A DNA stretch of 64,000 nucleotides. Origin: Wenzhouxiangella marina. Lineage in GTDB: Bacteria > Pseudomonadota > Gammaproteobacteria > Xanthomonadales > Wenzhouxiangellaceae. A program made the position numbers and the translations under genes. The notes under the pieces were generated by a model. The model did no database searches and was not told the DNA's origin. It worked only from the letters and a program-made list of their open reading frames with translations. The stretch covers positions 1,172,501 through 1,236,500 of the forward strand of contig NZ_CP012154.1 of assembly GCF_001187785.1 (NCBI RefSeq), given 5' to 3'. Shown here in pieces: positions 1 to 8,304 of this stretch. Positions within the stretch are counted from its first letter, which is position 1, and every line of letters begins with the position of its first letter.

Positions 1-390
1 TCCTCGAAGGCATCGCTCATCGAGACGCAGGACGCGACGTGAACGCGCGGCGGCTCACCACATACCGATCTACAGACATCGAATCTCCCCACCGATTCAT
101 CGAATGAAATCAACAACCACTGACAAACGCCTCCCCGAGGATAGCGATTCGTCCCCGCCCGGGCAATCGCTGCGCCGTCCAGGCGCGGCGCCGACCCTTG
201 ATCGAGTCCGGCTGGCCAACGGGCCGCTGCCTTGAAGAAGTGCGTGTCCATGCCTGTTCAACGCCGCCCACACCGCTGGATTTGAACTGACGACGAGAAA
301 AGCGCCTTGAATCCCTCGCTTTTGAAAATCCCCAGCCATGGCGCGTTGACCCCTTGCTCGACTCATCCAGAACGAACAAGGGAGAACAGC
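1..390. other. Left-edge region with no supported complete gene
   Basis: No reading frame here has a start, ribosome-binding site and protein-like composition. One frame on the plus strand is open from the window edge to a TGA at 40-42 and another to a TGA at 105-107. Either could be the tail of a gene lying outside the window, but neither tail is recognisable. The last 15 bases hold the purine-rich ribosome-binding site of the next gene. Confidence 0.4.
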
Positions 391-783
391 ATGACCAACA
401 ACAACCAAAGCGACAACGACAACTCGACACCCGCCAAGACTCCAGCGCCAGCCACCGAACCGCCGGCACCGATCCGTAGCGAAGCGGCCCCGCAGCGGCC
501 GGTCGAGGAGAGTCCCATGGGCGAGTTCCTCGCCTTCCGGCGCTTCGCCACGCCGGTGCTGGTCAAGATCGCCTTCTGGATCGGCACCCTGGTCTGCCTG
601 GTGCTGGGCATGAACACCATCGATGCCGCCAACCAGGGCTGGCGTGGCACCAACGCCGCCATGGTCTGGACCGGCGTCCTCACCATCACCCTCGGCCCCC
701 TGCTGCTGCGGATCGCCGGCGAACTGATCCTCGTCGTCTTCCGCATCAACGAGCGTCTCGCGGCACTGGAGCCTCACCGATGA
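391..783 (+). CDS. DUF4282 family small membrane protein
   Basis: This is a 130-residue protein. It has a hydrophilic, low-complexity N-terminal third rich in N, T, P and A, then two hydrophobic segments (roughly residues 50-70 and 88-108), and ends in a conserved-looking FRINERLA motif. The FLAFRRFATPVLVKIAFWIG start of the membrane part and the FRINE tail are typical of DUF4282. The function of the family is not established. The ATG at 391 is preceded by AAGGGAGA at a good distance, whereas an upstream in-frame ATG at 307 has no such site. The stop overlaps an in-frame upstream ATG of the next gene, so the two are probably co-transcribed. Confidence 0.8.
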   Translation: MTNNNQSDNDNSTPAKTPAPATEPPAPIRSEAAPQRPVEESPMGEFLAFRRFATPVLVKIAFWIGTLVCLVLGMNTIDAANQGWRGTNAAMVWTGVLTITLGPLLLRIAGELILVVFRINERLAALEPHR

Positions 784-860
784 GCGCGCCGAGCCATCCC
801 ATCCGCCAGGCCTCAGCGGCCCCATCACCCCGTTCCCATCGCCCTACAAGGAGACCATCC

Positions 861-2117
861 ATGACCCGATCGCTCATTCAATCCGCCCTGCTGCTCGCCG
901 CTACGAGCCTGCTGCTCGCCTGCGGCGGATCGCCCGGCCCGGATGCCGATGAACTGGAAGCCGAACTCGTCGCCCGTGTGCTGCCCGCCTCCTGGCAGAT
1001 CGAGTCGCTGTCGATCAGCGCCGCCGAGAACACGGGTAGCGAAGTCGAGCCGATCATCACCACGCGCTTCGAGCTGGAACTGGAGCTTCAGCAGGACCTC
1101 TACGAGCCGGCCTTCTCCAGCCAGCCCCTGGAGAGCGAAGGCGGCCGCACCGCGCGCCACATCGCAGGCCGGCGCGTGATCGAGAAAGTGCGCAGCGAAG
1201 GCGATGAGGAAATCGTCTTCGGCCTGGCCAGATCAGTGCGCCGCGGCGAGGGTTGGCAGACCCTCTTCGAGCTTGAGAGTATGCCCTGGCGCTACGCCGG
1301 CGAACCCCTGTCGGGATTCGGCAACGACTACGTCATCGCCGGCTCCGAGCAGGAGACCGAGCTGATCGCAGAGGTGGAAGAGGCCTGGCGGGCCGAGCAG
1401 GAACGATTGGCTGAAGCCGAACGCCGTGAGCAGGAGGCCCTGGCCGCGACCAACCAGGCCATCCTCGAGTTGCTGGGCAGCGGTTTCGCCGAGCTCGAAG
1501 CCGAGCGCAACGGCGACTTCGTCAACGCCATCGCCGAGTTCCAGCCCCCGGGCCAGATCGAGCGCCGCTTCGATCTGCCGATCGTCTTCGCCGGTGCGAC
1601 CTACACCTACCACGCCATCATCCGCGACGGCCGCCTGCGCCTGACCGACCCCGAAGGCAACTGTCGCGTCGAGCTGCAGCTACTCGCCAGCGGCGAGCAG
1701 CTCGAGGGCGTGTCCACCTGCTCCCTGATGCCCGGCGCCATCGCCTGGGTGCCGACCAGCGAAGCGGCGCTGAGCGCTAAATATCAGGAGGCCAACCAGC
1801 AGCTCCTTGCCTTCTTCCAGTCCGCGCGATCCAACGGAACCCTGAGTTTCACCGAACGCAACCTGACCTTCGGCGGCAGCAATACCTTCACGATCGAAAT
1901 CACCGGCATCGAAGGGACGACGATCAATCTCGATGGCTACCGCTACGGGCGCAAACAGTGGTCCGCCGTCTGGTATATCCAGTACGGGAAGATCCGCAGC
2001 CGAACCACCGACGCCTTCTGGTATTTCCTGGAGTATCGCTCACCCGAAGCCCTGGAGGGTCGTCGTTACAACAATCGCCCGAATCGCCCGATCGGCCTGG
2101 AACTCCGCCGCGGCTGA
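861..2117 (+). CDS. Predicted lipoprotein of unknown function
   Basis: A protein of 418 residues begins with a lipoprotein signal: a hydrophobic run ends in the lipobox LLAC at residues 17-20, followed by GGS. The ATG at 861 sits behind AAGGAG (848-853) and fits the signal peptide. The in-frame ATG at 780 would add 27 non-hydrophobic residues and is unlikely. After an acidic N-terminal domain comes a short charged helix rich in A, E and R (about residues 168-200, likely coiled coil), then a C-terminal domain rich in aromatic and beta-type sequence. I do not recognise the family. Residues after the Cys (GGSPG) give no clear inner-membrane retention signal, so an outer-membrane anchor facing the periplasm is the simplest guess. 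Confidence 0.7.
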   Translation: MTRSLIQSALLLAATSLLLACGGSPGPDADELEAELVARVLPASWQIESLSISAAENTGSEVEPIITTRFELELELQQDLYEPAFSSQPLESEGGRTARHIAGRRVIEKVRSEGDEEIVFGLARSVRRGEGWQTLFELESMPWRYAGEPLSGFGNDYVIAGSEQETELIAEVEEAWRAEQERLAEAERREQEALAATNQAILELLGSGFAELEAERNGDFVNAIAEFQPPGQIERRFDLPIVFAGATYTYHAIIRDGRLRLTDPEGNCRVELQLLASGEQLEGVSTCSLMPGAIAWVPTSEAALSAKYQEANQQLLAFFQSARSNGTLSFTERNLTFGGSNTFTIEITGIEGTTINLDGYRYGRKQWSAVWYIQYGKIRSRTTDAFWYFLEYRSPEALEGRRYNNRPNRPIGLELRRG

Positions 2118-2161: not shown

Positions 2162-2664
2162 GATGACGACCCATCGCTCATGCCGAGTCCTTTATCGATG
2201 TCGACCGTTTCACATTTCTCCTGCGACCGGTTTGTGCCGACGGCGCGTCTTTGCTATAACCAGAACCGTGGGCAAAGTTGGCAACAGGGGCGCGGTGCCG
2301 AGCAGATCGGTCCGTCGAGCAGGGGAAGCTGTCGAATCGATGACGGCGATTCCATGTGCGAAGAAGTCGGCCGCCTCGGTCGTGCAATTTGCGCTTTTCT
2401 CACGCTGATTGCGCTCAAGTACAAGGGCGCGAGAGAAGCAAGTTGGATAATTTGTCCTTCTAGATTCTGACAGAAAACCACCTGAATCCTGGAACCCCCG
2501 GGAGGATGTGAACTGAATTGGCTAATACACAGCAGAACCATGGCCAGTCGCAAACAGGACATCCTGAACGTAGGGGATTTTTATGTATAAAAAGCAGAAA
2601 TCTTTTGGTTCCACAACGCGCTTTCTCTGAATTTGTAGCTTGTAGTCAATAGGAGTTCTAGAAG
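2162..2664. other. Long low-GC intergenic region upstream of the STAND-like gene
   Basis: About 500 bases without a credible gene. Base composition falls steadily from the high-GC left flank to the A+T-rich right end. TTTTTA (2578-2583) and TAAAAA (2588-2593) form an AT-rich inverted repeat about 75 bases before the start codon, in a place suited to a promoter or operator. TAGGAG just before the ATG at 2665 is the ribosome-binding site. I saw no copy of the tRNA-Val 3' end and no integrase fragment here. Confidence 0.45.
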
Positions 2665-5600
2665 ATGCCGCTACCTCCGCCAACAGCCCCTCGGGCTAGA
2701 GAACTTCCCAAAGATATCTTTGTGAACCGAGGGTCAACGATCAAATGGGTTAATGATCTGTACAGGAAAGTGTCGCAGAGTCGATCTTCGGAGCTTGCGT
2801 TGATATTGGGCAAAGGTGGGGAAGGAAAGACGACTCTGAAGCAGTATCTGGTCAATAAGGTCCTTATAAAAAACACCGATTTCAGAAAGCCTTTGATTGT
2901 AGACGTTGATCTGAAGGACCTGACTCCCAACCAAACTCCGGATGCTGTAGAGCTTTTGGTTCGCATAAGAAACAAGCTCACCCAAGAAGGCCTTGCTCTC
3001 CCGCTGTTCGACTTTGCAATACATGCCCTATGGTCTGATGCCCAACGCTCCGAGGGGGAGGCCAAATTAGACAAGCGAAATTTAAAGCTAGAGTTGGAGG
3101 AAGGTATCGTAGAAGTCGGTAGGGACGTGATTGCCGAGTTCATAGAAAACGGAGAGAATGTTTCTATAAAGCTCCTTCGATTCGGATTGAAACAACTCAA
3201 TGAGCGTCTGTACCGAAGACGCAAGCTCCAGGCGCGATCTCAAGATCATTTTGATTTTATTGAATCACTGCTTAAAGAACAGATCATCGACAAAGAGAAG
3301 CTTGAAAAGCGCCTGCCGGAAATACTTGCGGATGATATTGAATTTCTGCTGAGTAATTGGGGGGCGAAGAAAGCTAGAACCCTTGTGGTTGTTTTTGACG
3401 AGTTCGAGCGTGTATTCGATGGCCACGAGCGAATTCCCAGCGATACGCTCCGGCGGATTGACAACGCGATCAACCTGATCGTTGCTACTTTGCGTACTCG
3501 AACGCTCTCGATTATTTTCAGTAGAAGAGCGCCGAACTGGGGCGAAACAAGCAAGGAGTGGGAGGCGTATCTTTCAAAGCAGACACGCAAGCTGCATGGC
3601 ATTCCCCTTCAAGATGCCAGGGAGTGGGTTCGTTGCGATGTGGATGATGATTTGCTGGTTCCAGTGATTCTTGCAAATGCCGGTGAGGATACTGATGGTG
3701 CAGAGCATTACTATGCGCTCCTGATTCGCTATCAGCTTGAACACATAGTTCCGAGGATCAAGCGCGGGGAGCGGATCGATGTTCGCAGTCTTGATATTCG
3801 CGACCGCGCCTTTGACGATCGTAAGCGTGAGATTATTAGTCGAGTCCTTCGCGACTACGATAGGCGGCTTAGGGCTGTTATCGAAGAGTTTTGTTACGTC
3901 GACTACTTTAATGAGGCGCTATTTAATGAGGTGATTGGGCAAATAGGAGCATCAGGTAAGCGCTCTAAATTCAGTGCTCTAACAAGTCTCTCCGTAATTC
4001 GCGAGCGAGGGAATGGCTTTTACGAAGTCACACCCGCTGTCGCCGACATTATTCGTTCTTCAGTCCCTGAGGAGGAGGGTCGGCGTATATATGAGAGACT
4101 TCTGGAGTCGTTGAATCGATTGATAGAGGTCCCGTACTCCGGGAAGTTTAGCTACCAGAATGTTCAGGCAGTCTCCATGGCGGTTTCAATTGCTTTTCGT
4201 GTCGATCATGATCGTGCGATTGAAATCGCGAGAAAGGCTGGTTCGCATTCGGCGTCAGCGGGATACGCGCGGCAATTAATAGATATATGCGATGAGCTCC
4301 GTGATCGTCTCCTATTGTCCGGAGATTTGAATGATCGCCGGGATCAGTCCTTGCTTGCACTTCGCGCGAGTCTTGATCTGAGCTTGGGAGACAACAGGCT
4401 TGCATTCGAGTTGATATCAAAGCATGAAAATGGCGATATCAAGCTCAGGGCGGTTGATGTCAGGTGGATGATTCTTTTGGCGCGATCGTTTGAGGATGCG
4501 GAGAGGGTTTTTAATGCTTTCGAGGCAGCGATTAGAGCTGCCCGTGGCGGTGTCCGTTCGCAGTACGTTTCGCTCGTCAGAGCCATGATAAAGAAGTCGC
4601 CAACCTCGGATATTCAGGACAAGTATATAGAGTTGCTTTTTGAGATCGATGAGCACGTAGATTCCTGGGTTCTTCGTTCGATGATCCGCCGCGCATCAGG
4701 CTTTGAAGAGGCGTGGAGGTTGGTGCTGGATCATTCATTTATCAAGATGGATCATAAGCATGTTGGCTTCCTGATGCAGAAGTACGAAACGAGAGAAGAT
4801 CTGGAAAATATCAAGGAGCTGATGTCAGAGCATGGAGTTCAATTGAATCAGGTTCATCGGAACATATTGTTCCAAAAGAGGAGCATCGTGGATCCTGATG
4901 ATGTTTTTCAAGGTTTTGAGGACGAGCGAAGGAAGCGTAGAAATATTGTTTCATATACGCAGGAGATCAACGTTTCTTCGAATTTTGAAGAGGCTCATGA
5001 ATTGTTTGTTTCTATGATTGAAGAGGGTATTGTTCCTGACTATCGGGCAATCGGTACACTTGCTGAAAAAGTTGGGGATCCTGAAGATCGACGGGCTTTT
5101 CTTGACTCGATAGACTCTTTCGCGGATAGAGGTAATTGGGTCCAGTTTCAGGCCCTGCTTCATCAAGTTGACGATCTAAGGGAATGCCTTGATGCCGTCC
5201 AAGAGTTATTGGCTTTCGGCGTCGAAATGAAGCTTGGGTTCGCAAAGCGCATTGGTGACGCATGCCAAAGGTATGCAAGAGGACCTGAAGTTTCATTTGA
5301 CGAGATCTCTCAACATCGTTTGAGATTTGATTCTCTTTGTGAGCGCTTCGATGCCGCGGAAGGCGCTCTGGAGGAATGGGATCAACGTATTTTGGTGGTG
5401 CTGAAGCGTGATGATGTCGCGCGCAATTATTTCGCTGAATATCTCAAGCCCCTTGGTGTTCAATTGCGCGCGCAAGCGTTGCGCCGAATGATGCTGGCTG
5501 AGACTGATTTTGATTCGGCAATGCAATGGGTTGTGGCCCTGAGAGGATCTGACTCCACAATAGCGCCGGATGTGGTTACCTCGCTGGCAAAGAAATGCCG

Positions 5601-6117
5601 TGATTGGTCTGATTCGAAGCAGGTCTTGGAGCTTGCTGAACAACAGCTAGTGCCTGTGGCGGGGCTGGTTTCGGCAATTCTCCGAGCACAGTCCGAGGAT
5701 CCTCTGGCGGTTCAGAACAGCATCAAGCGTCTTATGGATCGTTTCGATCGCGAACCTTTGGAGGCGGCGTTACAAGAGCCCGGAGCCATTCGGGCGATGA
5801 TTGTTTGGAGTCAATCGCCCGACATGCTGGATGCTGTGATTGATCTGGCGAGAAAGTTGGATATTGCTCCGACAGCTAGCGTTATTGTACGAATTGCCGA
5901 GCTCAGTCAGGCCCTGACGGAATTTGCACATAGGATGAGGAGACTTCCGCCGCCGGATGGTGTGTTTTCCCCTCGCATAGCAACAGCGCTGGTGCCGCTT
6001 CTGGGGGCTACGCTGGATGGATCGGATTTGCATGCCCTGGCGGGATTATGGGGAATGAGCAAAGAGGATATCCGCGTCTCTCTCGAAATAGGTCGTGAGA
6101 AGATACTAGGAAGTTGA
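2665..6117 (+). CDS. Large STAND-like P-loop ATPase with PPR-like helical repeats; candidate defence gene
   Basis: This protein has 1150 residues. The N-terminal P-loop domain has Walker A GKGGEGKTT at residues 49-57 and Walker B TLVVVFDEFE near 238-247. A following strand ends IIFSRR (about 280), as in the sensor region of STAND/AAA ATPases. The remaining 700 residues are almost wholly helical repeats. Around residues 735-860 three consecutive units look like pentatricopeptide repeats; the clearest contains EAHELFVSMIEEGIVPD. No nuclease, TIR or protease effector motif is visible at either end. The gene is markedly A+T-rich (26 of 60 bases are G+C in 4921-4980) in a chromosome near 65-67%, which suggests horizontal transfer. 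STAND ATPases with C-terminal repeats commonly sense infection or act in signalling. A defence role here is inference; a regulator of the MalT type is the alternative. Confidence 0.75.
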   Translation: MPLPPPTAPRARELPKDIFVNRGSTIKWVNDLYRKVSQSRSSELALILGKGGEGKTTLKQYLVNKVLIKNTDFRKPLIVDVDLKDLTPNQTPDAVELLVRIRNKLTQEGLALPLFDFAIHALWSDAQRSEGEAKLDKRNLKLELEEGIVEVGRDVIAEFIENGENVSIKLLRFGLKQLNERLYRRRKLQARSQDHFDFIESLLKEQIIDKEKLEKRLPEILADDIEFLLSNWGAKKARTLVVVFDEFERVFDGHERIPSDTLRRIDNAINLIVATLRTRTLSIIFSRRAPNWGETSKEWEAYLSKQTRKLHGIPLQDAREWVRCDVDDDLLVPVILANAGEDTDGAEHYYALLIRYQLEHIVPRIKRGERIDVRSLDIRDRAFDDRKREIISRVLRDYDRRLRAVIEEFCYVDYFNEALFNEVIGQIGASGKRSKFSALTSLSVIRERGNGFYEVTPAVADIIRSSVPEEEGRRIYERLLESLNRLIEVPYSGKFSYQNVQAVSMAVSIAFRVDHDRAIEIARKAGSHSASAGYARQLIDICDELRDRLLLSGDLNDRRDQSLLALRASLDLSLGDNRLAFELISKHENGDIKLRAVDVRWMILLARSFEDAERVFNAFEAAIRAARGGVRSQYVSLVRAMIKKSPTSDIQDKYIELLFEIDEHVDSWVLRSMIRRASGFEEAWRLVLDHSFIKMDHKHVGFLMQKYETREDLENIKELMSEHGVQLNQVHRNILFQKRSIVDPDDVFQGFEDERRKRRNIVSYTQEINVSSNFEEAHELFVSMIEEGIVPDYRAIGTLAEKVGDPEDRRAFLDSIDSFADRGNWVQFQALLHQVDDLRECLDAVQELLAFGVEMKLGFAKRIGDACQRYARGPEVSFDEISQHRLRFDSLCERFDAAEGALEEWDQRILVVLKRDDVARNYFAEYLKPLGVQLRAQALRRMMLAETDFDSAMQWVVALRGSDSTIAPDVVTSLAKKCRDWSDSKQVLELAEQQLVPVAGLVSAILRAQSEDPLAVQNSIKRLMDRFDREPLEAALQEPGAIRAMIVWSQSPDMLDAVIDLARKLDIAPTASVIVRIAELSQALTEFAHRMRRLPPPDGVFSPRIATALVPLLGATLDGSDLHALAGLWGMSKEDIRVSLEIGREKILGS

Positions 6118-6285: not shown

Positions 6286-7710
6286 ATGACGCGACTCGAG
6301 AGCGAAGTAATTTCAATCACCTCTGATCCACCCCCAACCCCCATCCTCGGCTGGCAACGCTCGGCCAGCCCCAACCCCGGCTTCGGCTTCCAGCGCAAGT
6401 CCACAGGTTCATCCCCTCCCGGGCGTAGGCAGGCCATCGAGGCGGGCAGCGAGGGCCATCTGATGACCATTGCCCCGACCGGTTCGGGCAAGGGGCGGTC
6501 GGTGATCATTCCGACCCTGTTGTCCTACACGGGGCCGGTGATCGTGGTGGATCCCAAGGGGGAGAACTACCAGGTCACGGCCAGGCGGCGGCGGGAGATG
6601 GGGCAGGCGGTGTTCAAGCTCGATCCCTTCGGGGTGACGGGGGAGGACAGCAGCTGCTTCAACCTGATCGACACCATCGACGTCGATCATGTCTCGGCCT
6701 ACGACCAGGCGGTGGCGATGGCCGAGCTGATCGTGGCCAATCGCAGCCTGCGCGACCCCTTCTGGGACGACAGCGCCCGGCTGTTGACGGGGGCGCTGAT
6801 CCTGCACGTGGCCACGGCCCGGCCGCCGGTGCTTCGTAATCTGAGTGAGGTGTTCTACCTGCTCAACCAGACCACGGAGGACATGGCGTTCACGATCAAG
6901 GAGCTGCAGAAGTCCAAGAATGAAATGGTGCGCTTCATGGCCTCGGGTTTTTCGGCGACGGAAGCCAGGGTCTGGGCCAGCATCCTGTCGACGGCCAGGG
7001 CATCCACGGGGGTGTTCAACGGGCCGGCCTTCGGCCAGATCAGCGGCAACAGCGAGATTCCCCTGGATGGCATCGTCCGCGGGGATCCGATCAGCATCTA
7101 CCTGATCCTGCCGCCGGAAAAGCTCGACAGCCACGGCAGCCTGCTTCGGGTCTGGATCGGCAGCCTGATGGATCAGCTCTGCAAGCGCCGCCACCAGGTG
7201 CCCGAGCCGACCCTGTTCATTCTCGACGAGGCCGCCCAGCTCGGCGAGCTCAAGCAGCTGCGCCGGGCTGTGACCCTGCTGCGCGGCTACGGGGTGCGGA
7301 CCTGGAGCTTCTGGCAGGATCTCAGCCAGCTCCAGAGCCTCTACCCGGACTGGGAAACGCTCTACAACAACACGCGCTACATCCAGACCTTCGGCGCCAC
7401 CACGCATCTGTTGGGGGCCTCGCTCAGCCGCCTGCTGAATCTGCCCGGGGATGTCGATCCATTGAAGTTGACGCCCGGCGAGCTGATCCTCGCCGAAGCC
7501 GGGTGCCCGGCCCGGGTGGTGCTCAAGCCCGACTACCTGAAGGACGCCTGCTTCCGGGGGCACTACGACGACAACCCCTTCTACCAGCCCGCCTTGCCCG
7601 TGCCGGCACTGGCGGAATCAGCGAGCCAGGTGGTGCCGATCGAGCCCCGGGCCGCCGATGATCCCGAGTCCGAGCGAGACGAGCCCACCGACCCGGGCCG
7701 CGCCGACTGA
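6286..7710 (+). CDS. Orphan VirD4/TraG-like coupling ATPase without membrane anchor
   Basis: This 474-residue protein belongs to the type IV coupling-protein family, hexameric ATPases that normally bring DNA or protein substrates to a type IV secretion channel. Walker A PTGSGKGRS lies near residues 63-71, followed by the family-typical VVDPKGEN. Walker B LFILDEAAQLG is near 311-321. The usual two N-terminal transmembrane helices are missing: the protein starts with about 45 polar residues and passes straight into the ATPase core, so it should be cytosolic. No relaxase, VirB or pilus gene is present in the window. The start at 6286 has CGGAG just upstream. Its stop overlaps the next start by one base, so it is tightly coupled to the cREC gene. 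GC content is high, unlike the preceding gene. Confidence 0.85.
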   Translation: MTRLESEVISITSDPPPTPILGWQRSASPNPGFGFQRKSTGSSPPGRRQAIEAGSEGHLMTIAPTGSGKGRSVIIPTLLSYTGPVIVVDPKGENYQVTARRRREMGQAVFKLDPFGVTGEDSSCFNLIDTIDVDHVSAYDQAVAMAELIVANRSLRDPFWDDSARLLTGALILHVATARPPVLRNLSEVFYLLNQTTEDMAFTIKELQKSKNEMVRFMASGFSATEARVWASILSTARASTGVFNGPAFGQISGNSEIPLDGIVRGDPISIYLILPPEKLDSHGSLLRVWIGSLMDQLCKRRHQVPEPTLFILDEAAQLGELKQLRRAVTLLRGYGVRTWSFWQDLSQLQSLYPDWETLYNNTRYIQTFGATTHLLGASLSRLLNLPGDVDPLKLTPGELILAEAGCPARVVLKPDYLKDACFRGHYDDNPFYQPALPVPALAESASQVVPIEPRAADDPESERDEPTDPGRAD

Positions 7711-8156
7711 TGGCGCGGCCCGACGGCCCCAAAACCCCGCCGATCCGCCTGCTGGTGGTCGAGGACAATGCCGAGCGCATCGCGCGGTTCGAGCGCTGGA
7801 TGCCGCCGGACGTGCGCGTGACCTTCGCACGCAGCGCGGGGCGTGCGATGCGCATCATCGAGCTGGATGCGGGCCGAGTCTACGCCGGCATGCTCCTCGA
7901 TCACGATCTCGACGATCAGAACGCCTCGGACGATGAGCTGGGCCTGACCGGTCGCCACGTGGTCGACCGGATCATCCGCCACACGGACCCGGACGCGGCC
8001 ATGCTGGTGCACTCGATCAACCCGGGCGGGGCGAGGATGATGGTGCGCCGCCTGGAGCTGGCGGGCTTCTGGGTGACCCGGATGCCGTTCCCCGTGCTCA
8101 GCGAAGCGAAGCTCAGGACCTGGATCGACGAGATCAGGAGCTACTGGCGGCCCTAG
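7710..8156 (+). CDS. Cyclic-phosphate-processing receiver (cREC) protein
   Basis: This is a stand-alone domain of 148 residues with the receiver (Rossmann-like) fold pattern. It starts RLLVVEDNAERI, like response regulators, but then departs from them. The usual phospho-acceptor strand reads LLDHDLDD (about 53-60), and the next strand ends VHSINPGGARMM (about 101-112). The DHDL and HSxNxxGxxxM signatures belong to the cREC family, which has been proposed from comparative genomics to process cyclic phosphate ends in RNA repair or conflict systems. The canonical lysine and Thr/Ser switch of a two-component receiver are not apparent. It is translationally coupled (one-base overlap) to the VirD4-like ATPase, so the two products probably work together. 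A strong terminator follows the stop. Confidence 0.75.
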   Translation: MARPDGPKTPPIRLLVVEDNAERIARFERWMPPDVRVTFARSAGRAMRIIELDAGRVYAGMLLDHDLDDQNASDDELGLTGRHVVDRIIRHTDPDAAMLVHSINPGGARMMVRRLELAGFWVTRMPFPVLSEAKLRTWIDEIRSYWRP

Positions 8157-8170
8157 CAGAGCCCGGAAAA

Positions 8171-8204
8171 GAAAAAGCCTGCGCCGGGAGGCGCAGGCTT
8201 TTTT
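8171..8204. terminator. Strong bidirectional intrinsic terminator
   Basis: AAAAA precedes GCCTGCGCC, a GGGA loop with one extra pairing option, then GGCGCAGGC and TTTTTT. The A-run and T-run flank a 9-bp GC stem, so it terminates in both directions. It ends the cREC operon on the plus strand and the tRNA transcript on the minus strand. Confidence 0.92.
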
Positions 8205-8229: not shown

Positions 8230-8304
8230 TGGTGGGCGATGGTGGGATCGAACCACCGACCCCTGCCGTGTGAAGGCAGTGCTCTCCCGCTGAGCTAATC
8301 GCCC
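8230..8304 (-). tRNA. tRNA-Val (anticodon CAC)
   Basis: Read on the minus strand, GGGCGAT pairs with ATCGCCC as acceptor stem. The D-arm is GCTC/GAGC, the anticodon stem CTGCC/GGCAG around loop TTCACAC, the variable loop GGGTC, and the T-arm GGTGG-TTCGATC-CCACC. Discriminator A is followed by an encoded CCA (8232-8230). Loop positions 34-36 read CAC, which decodes GUG (valine). The accessory genes at 2665-8156 lie on its 3' side, the usual side for integration, but no repeated copy of the tRNA end was found. Confidence 0.95.

What the first reader, a model, noticed from the sequence alone, without database searches (positions are those of the whole stretch)
6286..8156. Orphan soluble VirD4-like ATPase coupled to a cREC protein
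A coupling-protein ATPase without its membrane helices overlaps by one base with a stand-alone receiver domain of the cyclic-phosphate-processing (cREC) family. No relaxase or type IV channel is nearby. One is a nucleic-acid translocase relative and the other has been linked by comparative genomics to RNA-end repair. Their translational coupling suggests a two-gene system acting on nucleic acids inside the cell, possibly with the STAND-like gene upstream. I know of no described system with this pair.
Basis: partly seen in the sequence, partly recalled or inferred. Interest (0 to 1): 0.75.

Follow-up and report, generated by a model that had tools for sequence, protein, structure and literature searches.

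The report
Soluble VirD4-like motor paired with cREC
A bacterial motor protein related to those that pump DNA through conjugation channels, but lacking its membrane anchor and any channel, belongs to a small widespread family that in relatives travels in compact gene cassettes resembling anti-virus systems; here it sits beside a predicted RNA-end-processing enzyme.

Summary
VirD4L (6286-7710) and a stand-alone cREC (7710-8156) overlap by one base. VirD4L has no transmembrane segment, and the complete 3.68 Mb genome has no VirB4. It is not a decayed conjugation gene: in a tree, 29 membrane-free VirD4L rows from Pseudomonadota and Bacteroidota form one clade (100/100), apart from 11 conventional coupling proteins. 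VirB4 is absent from 12 of 18 carrier genomes examined. Its predicted fold is TrwB without the anchor (Z 30.5).

The proposed fixed two-gene system is only partly supported. Immediate VirD4L-cREC adjacency occurs only in this genome; in the one other genome found with both, cREC lies 20 kb downstream on the same strand, beyond type III CRISPR genes. Partners elsewhere differ: NYN RNase plus a large STAND-like NTPase (Erythrobacteraceae), an unnamed domain (Sphingomonads, Sinorhizobium), X-Y genes (local paralogue), or none (most Bacteroidota). The Erythrobacteraceae trio is a discrete mobile unit: 6,486 bp, 99.7% identical between two genera, flanks unrelated.

Best reading: VirD4L is the motor of modular intracellular conflict cassettes, and cREC fills the small-enzyme slot here. 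Defence is inferred, not shown. The window STAND has foreign codon composition and may be independent.

The parts
6286..7710 (+). VirD4L-a: soluble VirD4/TrwB-like ATPase, 474 aa; Walker A near residue 63-70, Walker B LFILDEAAQLG near 310-320, no membrane anchor
7710..8156 (+). cREC: stand-alone cyclic-phosphate-processing receiver domain, 148 aa, overlapping VirD4L by one base (TGATG)
2665..6117 (+). STAND-like NTPase, 1150 aa, P-loop GKGGEGKT at residue 49, Walker B LVVVFDEFER at 240, one PPR-like repeat near 750-808; GC3 0.50, foreign to its surroundings; possible sensor, membership unproven
8172..8203 (.). terminator-like hairpin with A run and T run between cREC and tRNA-Val (may serve both strands)
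   Evidence: (self-match of the inverted repeat)
8230..8304 (-). tRNA-Val(CAC), end of the accessory stretch; tRNA-RND order seen in some congeners, neighbour on the other side differs
307..2117 (+). DUF4282 protein (307-783) and putative lipoprotein (780-2117), whose homologues also sit beside VirD4L genes in L012

Best explanation
VirD4L is a cytosolic motor of the TrwB/VirD4 fold that has shed the membrane anchor and its secretion channel. It serves as the motor subunit of modular intracellular conflict cassettes, most likely against phages or plasmids. In the fullest form (Erythrobacteraceae) the cassette is motor + co-translated small RNA enzyme (NYN, PIN-like RNase) + large STAND-like P-loop NTPase. 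By analogy, in this window the STAND-like gene would sense the invader, VirD4L would assemble as an ATP-driven ring on the invader's nucleic acid or on the sensor, and the co-translated cREC would occupy the small-enzyme slot, opening cyclic phosphates (2',3'-cyclic RNA ends or cyclic ADP-ribose phosphates) made during the response. Shown here: the genes, their overlap, the anchor-free clade, absence of VirB4, the predicted fold, and that the Erythrobacteraceae trio moves as one unit. Inferred: defence, ring formation, the substrate, cREC activity, and that the window STAND belongs to the unit.
For: Clade of 29 membrane-free rows, 100/100, separate from 11 conventional coupling proteins. No VirB4 in 12 of 18 carrier genomes, including this complete one. 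Motor motifs kept (37 invariant columns over 24 aligned proteins, including G66, G68, K69, D314, E315, R333, Q344, Q348); purifying selection in 6 of 7 VirD4L pairs (dN/dS 0.05-0.31; the seventh pair is near-identical and says nothing). Fold: TrwBdeltaN70 Z 30.5, 356 residues, 3.3 A; next DndH-C, VirB4 and HerA anti-phage complexes. VirD4L-NYN-STAND-like segment 99.7% identical over 6,486 bp between Erythrobacter SD-21 and Qipengyuania, flanks unrelated; a second pair 94.2% over 6,764 bp; in L017 the same VirD4L-NYN start with a different large NTPase. STAND-type gene beside VirD4L in 10 of 29 clade rows, in 4 lineages. In G661 and G1028 the strongest AAA_16 match of the genome is the one next to VirD4L. 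cREC and soluble VirD4L are in the same 2 of 61 genomes.
Against: VirD4L-cREC adjacency in one genome only; 20 kb apart in G034, and in L012 the VirD4L-a copy is broken, with no cREC on the fetched contig. 19 of 29 clade rows have no STAND neighbour counted, including all 8 Bacteroidota rows, several of them among ordinary chromosomal genes. Only the Sinorhizobium and Sphingomonad STANDs pass Pfam cut-offs; the window one and those of L013 and L017 do not, and the Erythrobacteraceae and window NTPases align only weakly (hhalign probability 8%, E 0.004). Window STAND has foreign composition. PADLOC gives only weak hits for any part.
Confidence: 0.45

Rival explanations
1. VirD4L works alone or with changeable helpers. 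Its position beside cREC and the STAND-like gene is a chance juxtaposition in a variable stretch next to tRNA-Val, so the three genes are not one system.
For: Adjacency unique to this genome; cREC 20 kb away in G034 and next to a metallophosphoesterase there. Bacteroidota VirD4L genes mostly have no constant partner. STAND GC3 0.50 against 0.88/0.92; STAND found in none of 233 other class genomes or in plasmids.
Against: One-base stop/start overlap with matching composition; the same 2 of 61 genomes hold both genes, same strand, cREC downstream in both; other clade members also have a small gene overlapping VirD4L.
Confidence: 0.37
2. VirD4L is an ordinary cellular DNA-processing motor (repair, segregation or uptake), unrelated to conflict.
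For: HerA/FtsK-like fold neighbours include repair motors; stands alone in several Bacteroidota.
Against: Rare and patchy: 3 of 369 class genomes, 7 of 398 phylum genomes (of which 3 conventional) and 8 of 150 in a Bacteroidota family; moves between genera as a cassette.
Confidence: 0.12
3. VirD4L is a decaying leftover of a conjugative or mobilisable element.
For: One relative's copy (L012) is broken; G661, G894 and four Erythrobacteraceae genomes do hold VirB4 elsewhere.
Against: Anchor-free as a whole clade, intact motifs, dN/dS 0.05-0.31, no relaxase or integrase among the flanking genes tested.
Confidence: 0.03
4. The small protein is a phosphorelay receiver that regulates VirD4L.
For: Predicted fold matches receiver domains with probability 1.00.
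Against: The residue before the last-strand proline, where receivers have Lys, is not Lys in any of 3 sequences, and the Thr/Ser position reads an invariant His; no histidine kinase among the neighbours tested; Pfam gives cREC, not Response_reg.
Confidence: 0.03

Closest known systems
TrwB/VirD4/TraG type IV coupling proteins
   Same: PF02534 motor, Walker motifs, helical insertion, TrwBdeltaN70 fold Z 30.5
   Different: No membrane anchor, no relaxase or channel found, separate clade
HerA-type anti-phage complexes (SIR2-HerA, DUF4297-HerA, Nezha)
   Same: Cytosolic ring-motor fold with a partner enzyme gene; structural matches Z about 16-18
   Different: Motor is nearer to TrwB than to HerA; DUF87 (HerA) only E 0.027, below cut-off
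STAND/NLR-like defence proteins, incl. DUF4062 NADase Swarozyc (PMC13174449: abstract, outline and passages read)
   Same: Large STAND-type NTPases recur beside VirD4L; the Sinorhizobium STAND and L017 carry DUF4062 matches just under and well under the cut-off
   Different: The text passages describe DUF4062 with the phage portal; VirD4, TraG, TraD and HerA do not occur in that paper's main text
cREC proteins of phages (PMC7824862, PMC9503650: passages read)
   Same: Domain family, two acidic catalytic positions
   Different: Published contexts are RNA ligases, Nudix, sirtuin, 2H; the word VirD4 occurs in neither text

Membership tests
Type IV coupling protein (VirD4/TraG/TrwB) | PF02534-type motor with Walker A/B and coupling-protein fold | tested here: met
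Type IV coupling protein (VirD4/TraG/TrwB) | N-terminal membrane anchor | tested here: not met
   (maximum hydropathy 1.32; Walker A at residue 63)
Type IV coupling protein (VirD4/TraG/TrwB) | Relaxase or T4SS genes nearby, VirB4 in the genome | tested here: not met
   relaxases were not searched genome-wide
Type IV coupling protein (VirD4/TraG/TrwB) | Binds DNA or effectors and delivers them to a channel | not testable with these tools
   needs biochemistry
cREC (PF20274) | Score over curated cut-off | tested here: met
   39.3 bits against 27; relative in G034 40.4
cREC (PF20274) | Receiver fold with conserved aspartates | tested here: met
   (D19, D64 invariant in 3 sequences)
cREC (PF20274) | Context with RNA ligase, Nudix or sirtuin genes | tested here: not met
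   none among window neighbours tested by Pfam; metallophosphoesterase in G034
cREC (PF20274) | Opens cyclic phosphates | not testable with these tools
   predicted only, per PMC9503650 passages
Two-component receiver | Conserved Lys after last strand and Thr/Ser after strand 4 | tested here: not met
   canonical positions recalled, mapped by order of strands
STAND NTPase (gene 2665-6117) | STAND-type P-loop module over a curated cut-off plus repeat region | tested here: inconclusive
   AAA_16, NB-ARC, nSTAND5 all below cut-off; Walker A/B present; PPR-like repeat
HerA-type defence motor | HerA (DUF87) domain over cut-off | tested here: not met
   DUF87 15 bits against 23.2
Known anti-phage system in PADLOC | Match to a system model | tested here: inconclusive
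   mad8 28.3 bits for VirD4L, E 3e-07, likely a general ATPase-type match; HEC-09 27.5 bits for NYN

The most novel reading that the evidence does not exclude
A conjugation-type coupling motor has been domesticated, once, into an anchor-free family that powers a new kind of modular bacterial immune cassette: STAND sensor, VirD4-derived ring motor, and an interchangeable co-translated RNA-directed enzyme (NYN RNase, cREC). The motor would pull on or scan invading nucleic acid and feed it, or the signal, to the enzyme.
Probability: 0.3. Interest if true: 0.8.

Novelty: new variant of a known kind. Interest (0 to 1): 0.55.

Why it matters
Conjugation genes and immunity genes are usually opponents. 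An anchor-free VirD4 clade in STAND/nuclease cassettes would show the motor of gene transfer re-used inside the cell, parallel to HerA. Automatic annotation labels these genes 'conjugative DNA transfer', which hides them from defence searches and may make carriers look conjugative. The cREC partner would also give a concrete system in which to test the untested prediction that cREC opens cyclic phosphates.

Tried and rejected
Fixed VirD4L-cREC pair: looked for cREC beside all other VirD4L loci, in plasmids and phages (no match), viral contigs (none) and genome contigs (none confirmed). Only G034 has it.

Decayed mobile element: rejected by the clade, motifs and dN/dS. Integration at tRNA-Val with a duplicated end: no long copy of the tRNA end found in the 83 kb of own sequence searched; the site varies between congeners but no element could be outlined.

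Common partner domain: the Sphingomonad/Sinorhizobium upstream domain and the Wenzhouxiangella Y protein are not detectably related (hhalign probability 0.2%). The Erythrobacteraceae NTPase shows no useful similarity to those of L017 and L037.

AAA_16 as a genome-wide STAND census was too unspecific (10 to 43 matches per genome), so no enrichment statistic is claimed; its only use is that the top match in G661 and G1028 lies next to VirD4L.

Literature: searches (listings only, open-access library) showed no paper describing an anchor-free VirD4 clade or a VirD4-STAND or VirD4-cREC pair; this is absence from those searches, not proof. From the papers opened (PMC7824862, PMC9503650, PMC13174449) I read the passages returned by term search, and for the last also the abstract and outline.

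Rows dropped: the tree left out L004 (split gene), L071 (fragment), L067 (same as L050), the broken L012 copy and L011 (duplicate of G034). My own gene caller shortened the window VirD4L to 415 aa; the full 474-aa frame was used from then on.

Full report
OBSERVATION. Pfam gives T4SS-DNA_transf at 183.6 bits for the first and cREC_REC at 39.3 bits (cut-off 27) for the second. NCBIfam's VirD4/TraG models all score far below their cut-offs (best 141 of 250). The window is bases 1172501-1236500 of a complete 3.68 Mb genome whose nearest named relative in the searches is Wenzhouxiangella sp. XN79A (its contig has the same length, 136,637, as G034:C8). After cREC come a terminator-like hairpin (8172-8203), a tRNA-Val and an RND efflux gene.

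THE ATPASE IS SOLUBLE AND HAS NO CHANNEL. Its highest 19-residue hydropathy mean is 1.32 and Walker A begins near residue 63; across the VirD4L set the maxima are at most 1.94, while the 11 conventional proteins run from 1.93 to 3.00, 10 of them at least 2.22. PF03135 (VirB4) is absent from this complete genome and from 12 of 18 carrier genomes examined; six do hold it. No relaxase, integrase or T4SS gene appeared among the flanking genes given to Pfam; relaxases were not searched genome-wide.

IT IS A FAMILY. tblastn in plasmids gave 3,737 records at E up to 1e-10; among the 30 listed, nearly all conventional in length and context where looked at, three Sinorhizobium plasmids stood out at 45% with a short protein. 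Searches found soluble relatives in Erythrobacteraceae, a Sphingomonad-type family (f222), Gammaproteobacteria and Bacteroidota. It is rare: 3 of 369 class genomes, 7 of 398 phylum genomes (3 of these 7, G433, G707, G798, are conventional by hydropathy, relaxase neighbour or tree), 6 of 249 in one alphaproteobacterial family, 8 of 150 in one Bacteroidota family. In a maximum-likelihood tree of 40 proteins, 29 soluble rows form one clade with support 100/100 on a stem of 0.84, apart from 11 conventional ones (rows dropped beforehand are in Tried and rejected). Motor residues are invariant. dN/dS is 0.05-0.31 in 6 of 7 VirD4L pairs; the seventh is near-identical (the window-G034 pair has dS about 1, so its 0.31 is rough). 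The AlphaFold model (pLDDT 83, pTM 0.81) matches TrwBdeltaN70 with Z 30.5 over 356 residues, then Cag-beta, DndH-C, VirB4 and HerA complexes. VirD4L is thus, in predicted fold, a natural TrwB without its anchor.

WHO STANDS BESIDE IT. (i) Erythrobacteraceae (L013, L014, L016, L017, L021): VirD4L overlaps by 4 bases an NYN-domain gene (NYN 40.0 bits, cut-off 24.2, tested in L013), followed at once by a 1309-1973 aa P-loop NTPase. Between L013 and L021, of different genera, a 6,486-bp segment is 99.66% identical and spans just these three genes plus about 120 and 200 bases; the 21-kb stretches otherwise share only 147 bp. L014 and L016 share 6,764 bp at 94.2%, again the three genes (plus a 137-bp piece). 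L014 and L017 share only VirD4L and most of NYN; the NTPase differs (the L017 NYN frame is shorter, 139 aa, and it is a MAG contig). The unit is therefore a mobile, partly exchangeable cassette. The NTPase of L013 has no Pfam match and that of L017 only sub-threshold AAA/NACHT/DUF4062 matches, so 'STAND-like' rests on size, P-loop and weak alignment. (ii) Sinorhizobium (L003, L004, L056): a 254-aa gene before VirD4L; a divergent patatin gene and an nSTAND1-ankyrin protein (124.9 bits) that carries the same domain as the 254-aa gene (E about 1e-10); a DUF4062/NB-ARC-like/TPR STAND 0.9 kb downstream (in L004 VirD4L is split, in L056 the patatin gene is interrupted). (iii) L035, L037, L045, L046, L047 (family f222): a homologue of that domain overlaps VirD4L by 4 bases; in L037 and L047 a divergent STAND (AAA_16 57.7 bits in L037) is adjacent, and it is the strongest AAA_16 match in each of those two genomes. 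(iv) Wenzhouxiangella paralogue b: X-Y-VirD4L-b in this genome just left of the window, in G034 and in L012. (v) Bacteroidota: mostly no constant partner; a Runella plasmid copy lies near a caspase-family gene. In sum 10 of 29 clade rows have a STAND-type neighbour (window 1, Erythrobacteraceae 5, Sinorhizobium 2, f222 2); 19 do not. The local paralogue b, 4.4 kb from the window STAND, is counted among the 19.

cREC. The model (pLDDT 86.5) is a receiver fold. In the three-sequence alignment D19 and D64 are invariant; at the position of the canonical Thr/Ser stands an invariant His (H101), and the canonical Lys before the last-strand proline is not Lys in any of the three. The canonical positions are recalled and were mapped by order of strands. 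This fits cREC and not a phosphorelay receiver. Its activity is a published prediction: cREC 'remain experimentally uncharacterized' (PMC9503650, passage). In the class survey 45 of 369 genomes matched PF20274 at E up to 0.001, 11 over the cut-off, most inside long frames; of the 3 genomes of the same class draw with soluble VirD4L only this one is among the 45. Among 61 genomes (own plus 60 relatives) cREC is in 2 and soluble VirD4L in the same 2 (by hand, 1 in 1,830 if independent, though shared ancestry of one region makes that too kind). In G034 the two lie on the same strand, cREC 20 kb downstream, with RT-Cas1, Cas10-like and RAMP genes between them and a Card1-like nuclease and a metallophosphoesterase near cREC. 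L012 has VirD4L-b and a broken VirD4L-a, and no cREC on the stretch held.

THE STAND GENE OF THE WINDOW. It has GC3 0.50 against 0.82-0.92 for four neighbours, no homologue in 233 other class genomes (E up to 1e-8) or in plasmids (E up to 1e-5), and one PPR-like repeat. A 21-residue match to the end of a G034 lipoprotein-like gene lies just before it (window 2405-2467, E 0.006), hinting that it was inserted into an older stretch. Its role with VirD4L is a hypothesis by analogy with (i).

CONCLUSION. The specific two-gene system is seen once. I commit to 'motor of modular conflict cassettes' at 0.45, with chance juxtaposition of VirD4L and cREC as the main rival at 0.37. No defence activity has been shown for any of these genes here.

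Noticed in passing
window 2665-6117: Bacterial STAND-like NTPase with a pentatricopeptide-like repeat (TIGR00756 19.3 bits, just under its cut-off of 20; PPR structures at E down to 5e-14), foreign GC3 and no close relatives found.
   Followed up: partly
L022:16042-19000 (left of window; gene X begins at about window base 20, minus strand): Second soluble VirD4L (52%) in an operon with two genes, X and Y, without any Pfam match in the G034 copies; the trio is kept in G034 and L012.
   Followed up: partly
L025:2888-19320 and L024:14750-17431 (G034): Type III-type CRISPR genes with a Cas6-like/RT/Cas1 fusion, plus a Card1-like nuclease, lie between or beside VirD4L-a and cREC.
   Followed up: partly
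L003:4656-18845: Sinorhizobium plasmid island: nSTAND1-ankyrin, patatin, partner domain, VirD4L, DUF4062-like STAND and a TrkA-N/RyR-like protein, kept over 12.8 kb at 97.6% between two plasmids.
   Followed up: partly
L047:7790-9226, L003:11035-11799, L057:7225-9519: Unnamed domain overlapping VirD4L also occurs in a STAND-ankyrin and a TPR protein; no Pfam family over cut-off.
   Followed up: partly
L050:99-4805: Runella non-mobilizable plasmid: soluble VirD4L between two small hypothetical genes, divergent caspase-family gene beside them.
   Followed up: no
L070:5125-9413: Genes before a Bacteroidota VirD4L look like Cas2 and a reverse transcriptase by eye only; not tested with any model.
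   Followed up: no
L022:10344-12242: 632-aa protein built of many repeats of the type PGRFVAQ.GQ..A..C..GRFA, near a GT41-type transferase, a radical SAM and a DUF6445 gene.
   Followed up: no
window 2405-2467: Possible remnant of the end of a lipoprotein-like gene that follows VirD4L-a in G034 (52% over 21 residues, E 0.006).
   Followed up: partly
window 8230-8304: tRNA-Val next to the RND efflux gene is kept in three of eight congener loci examined, with different genes on its other side.
   Followed up: partly
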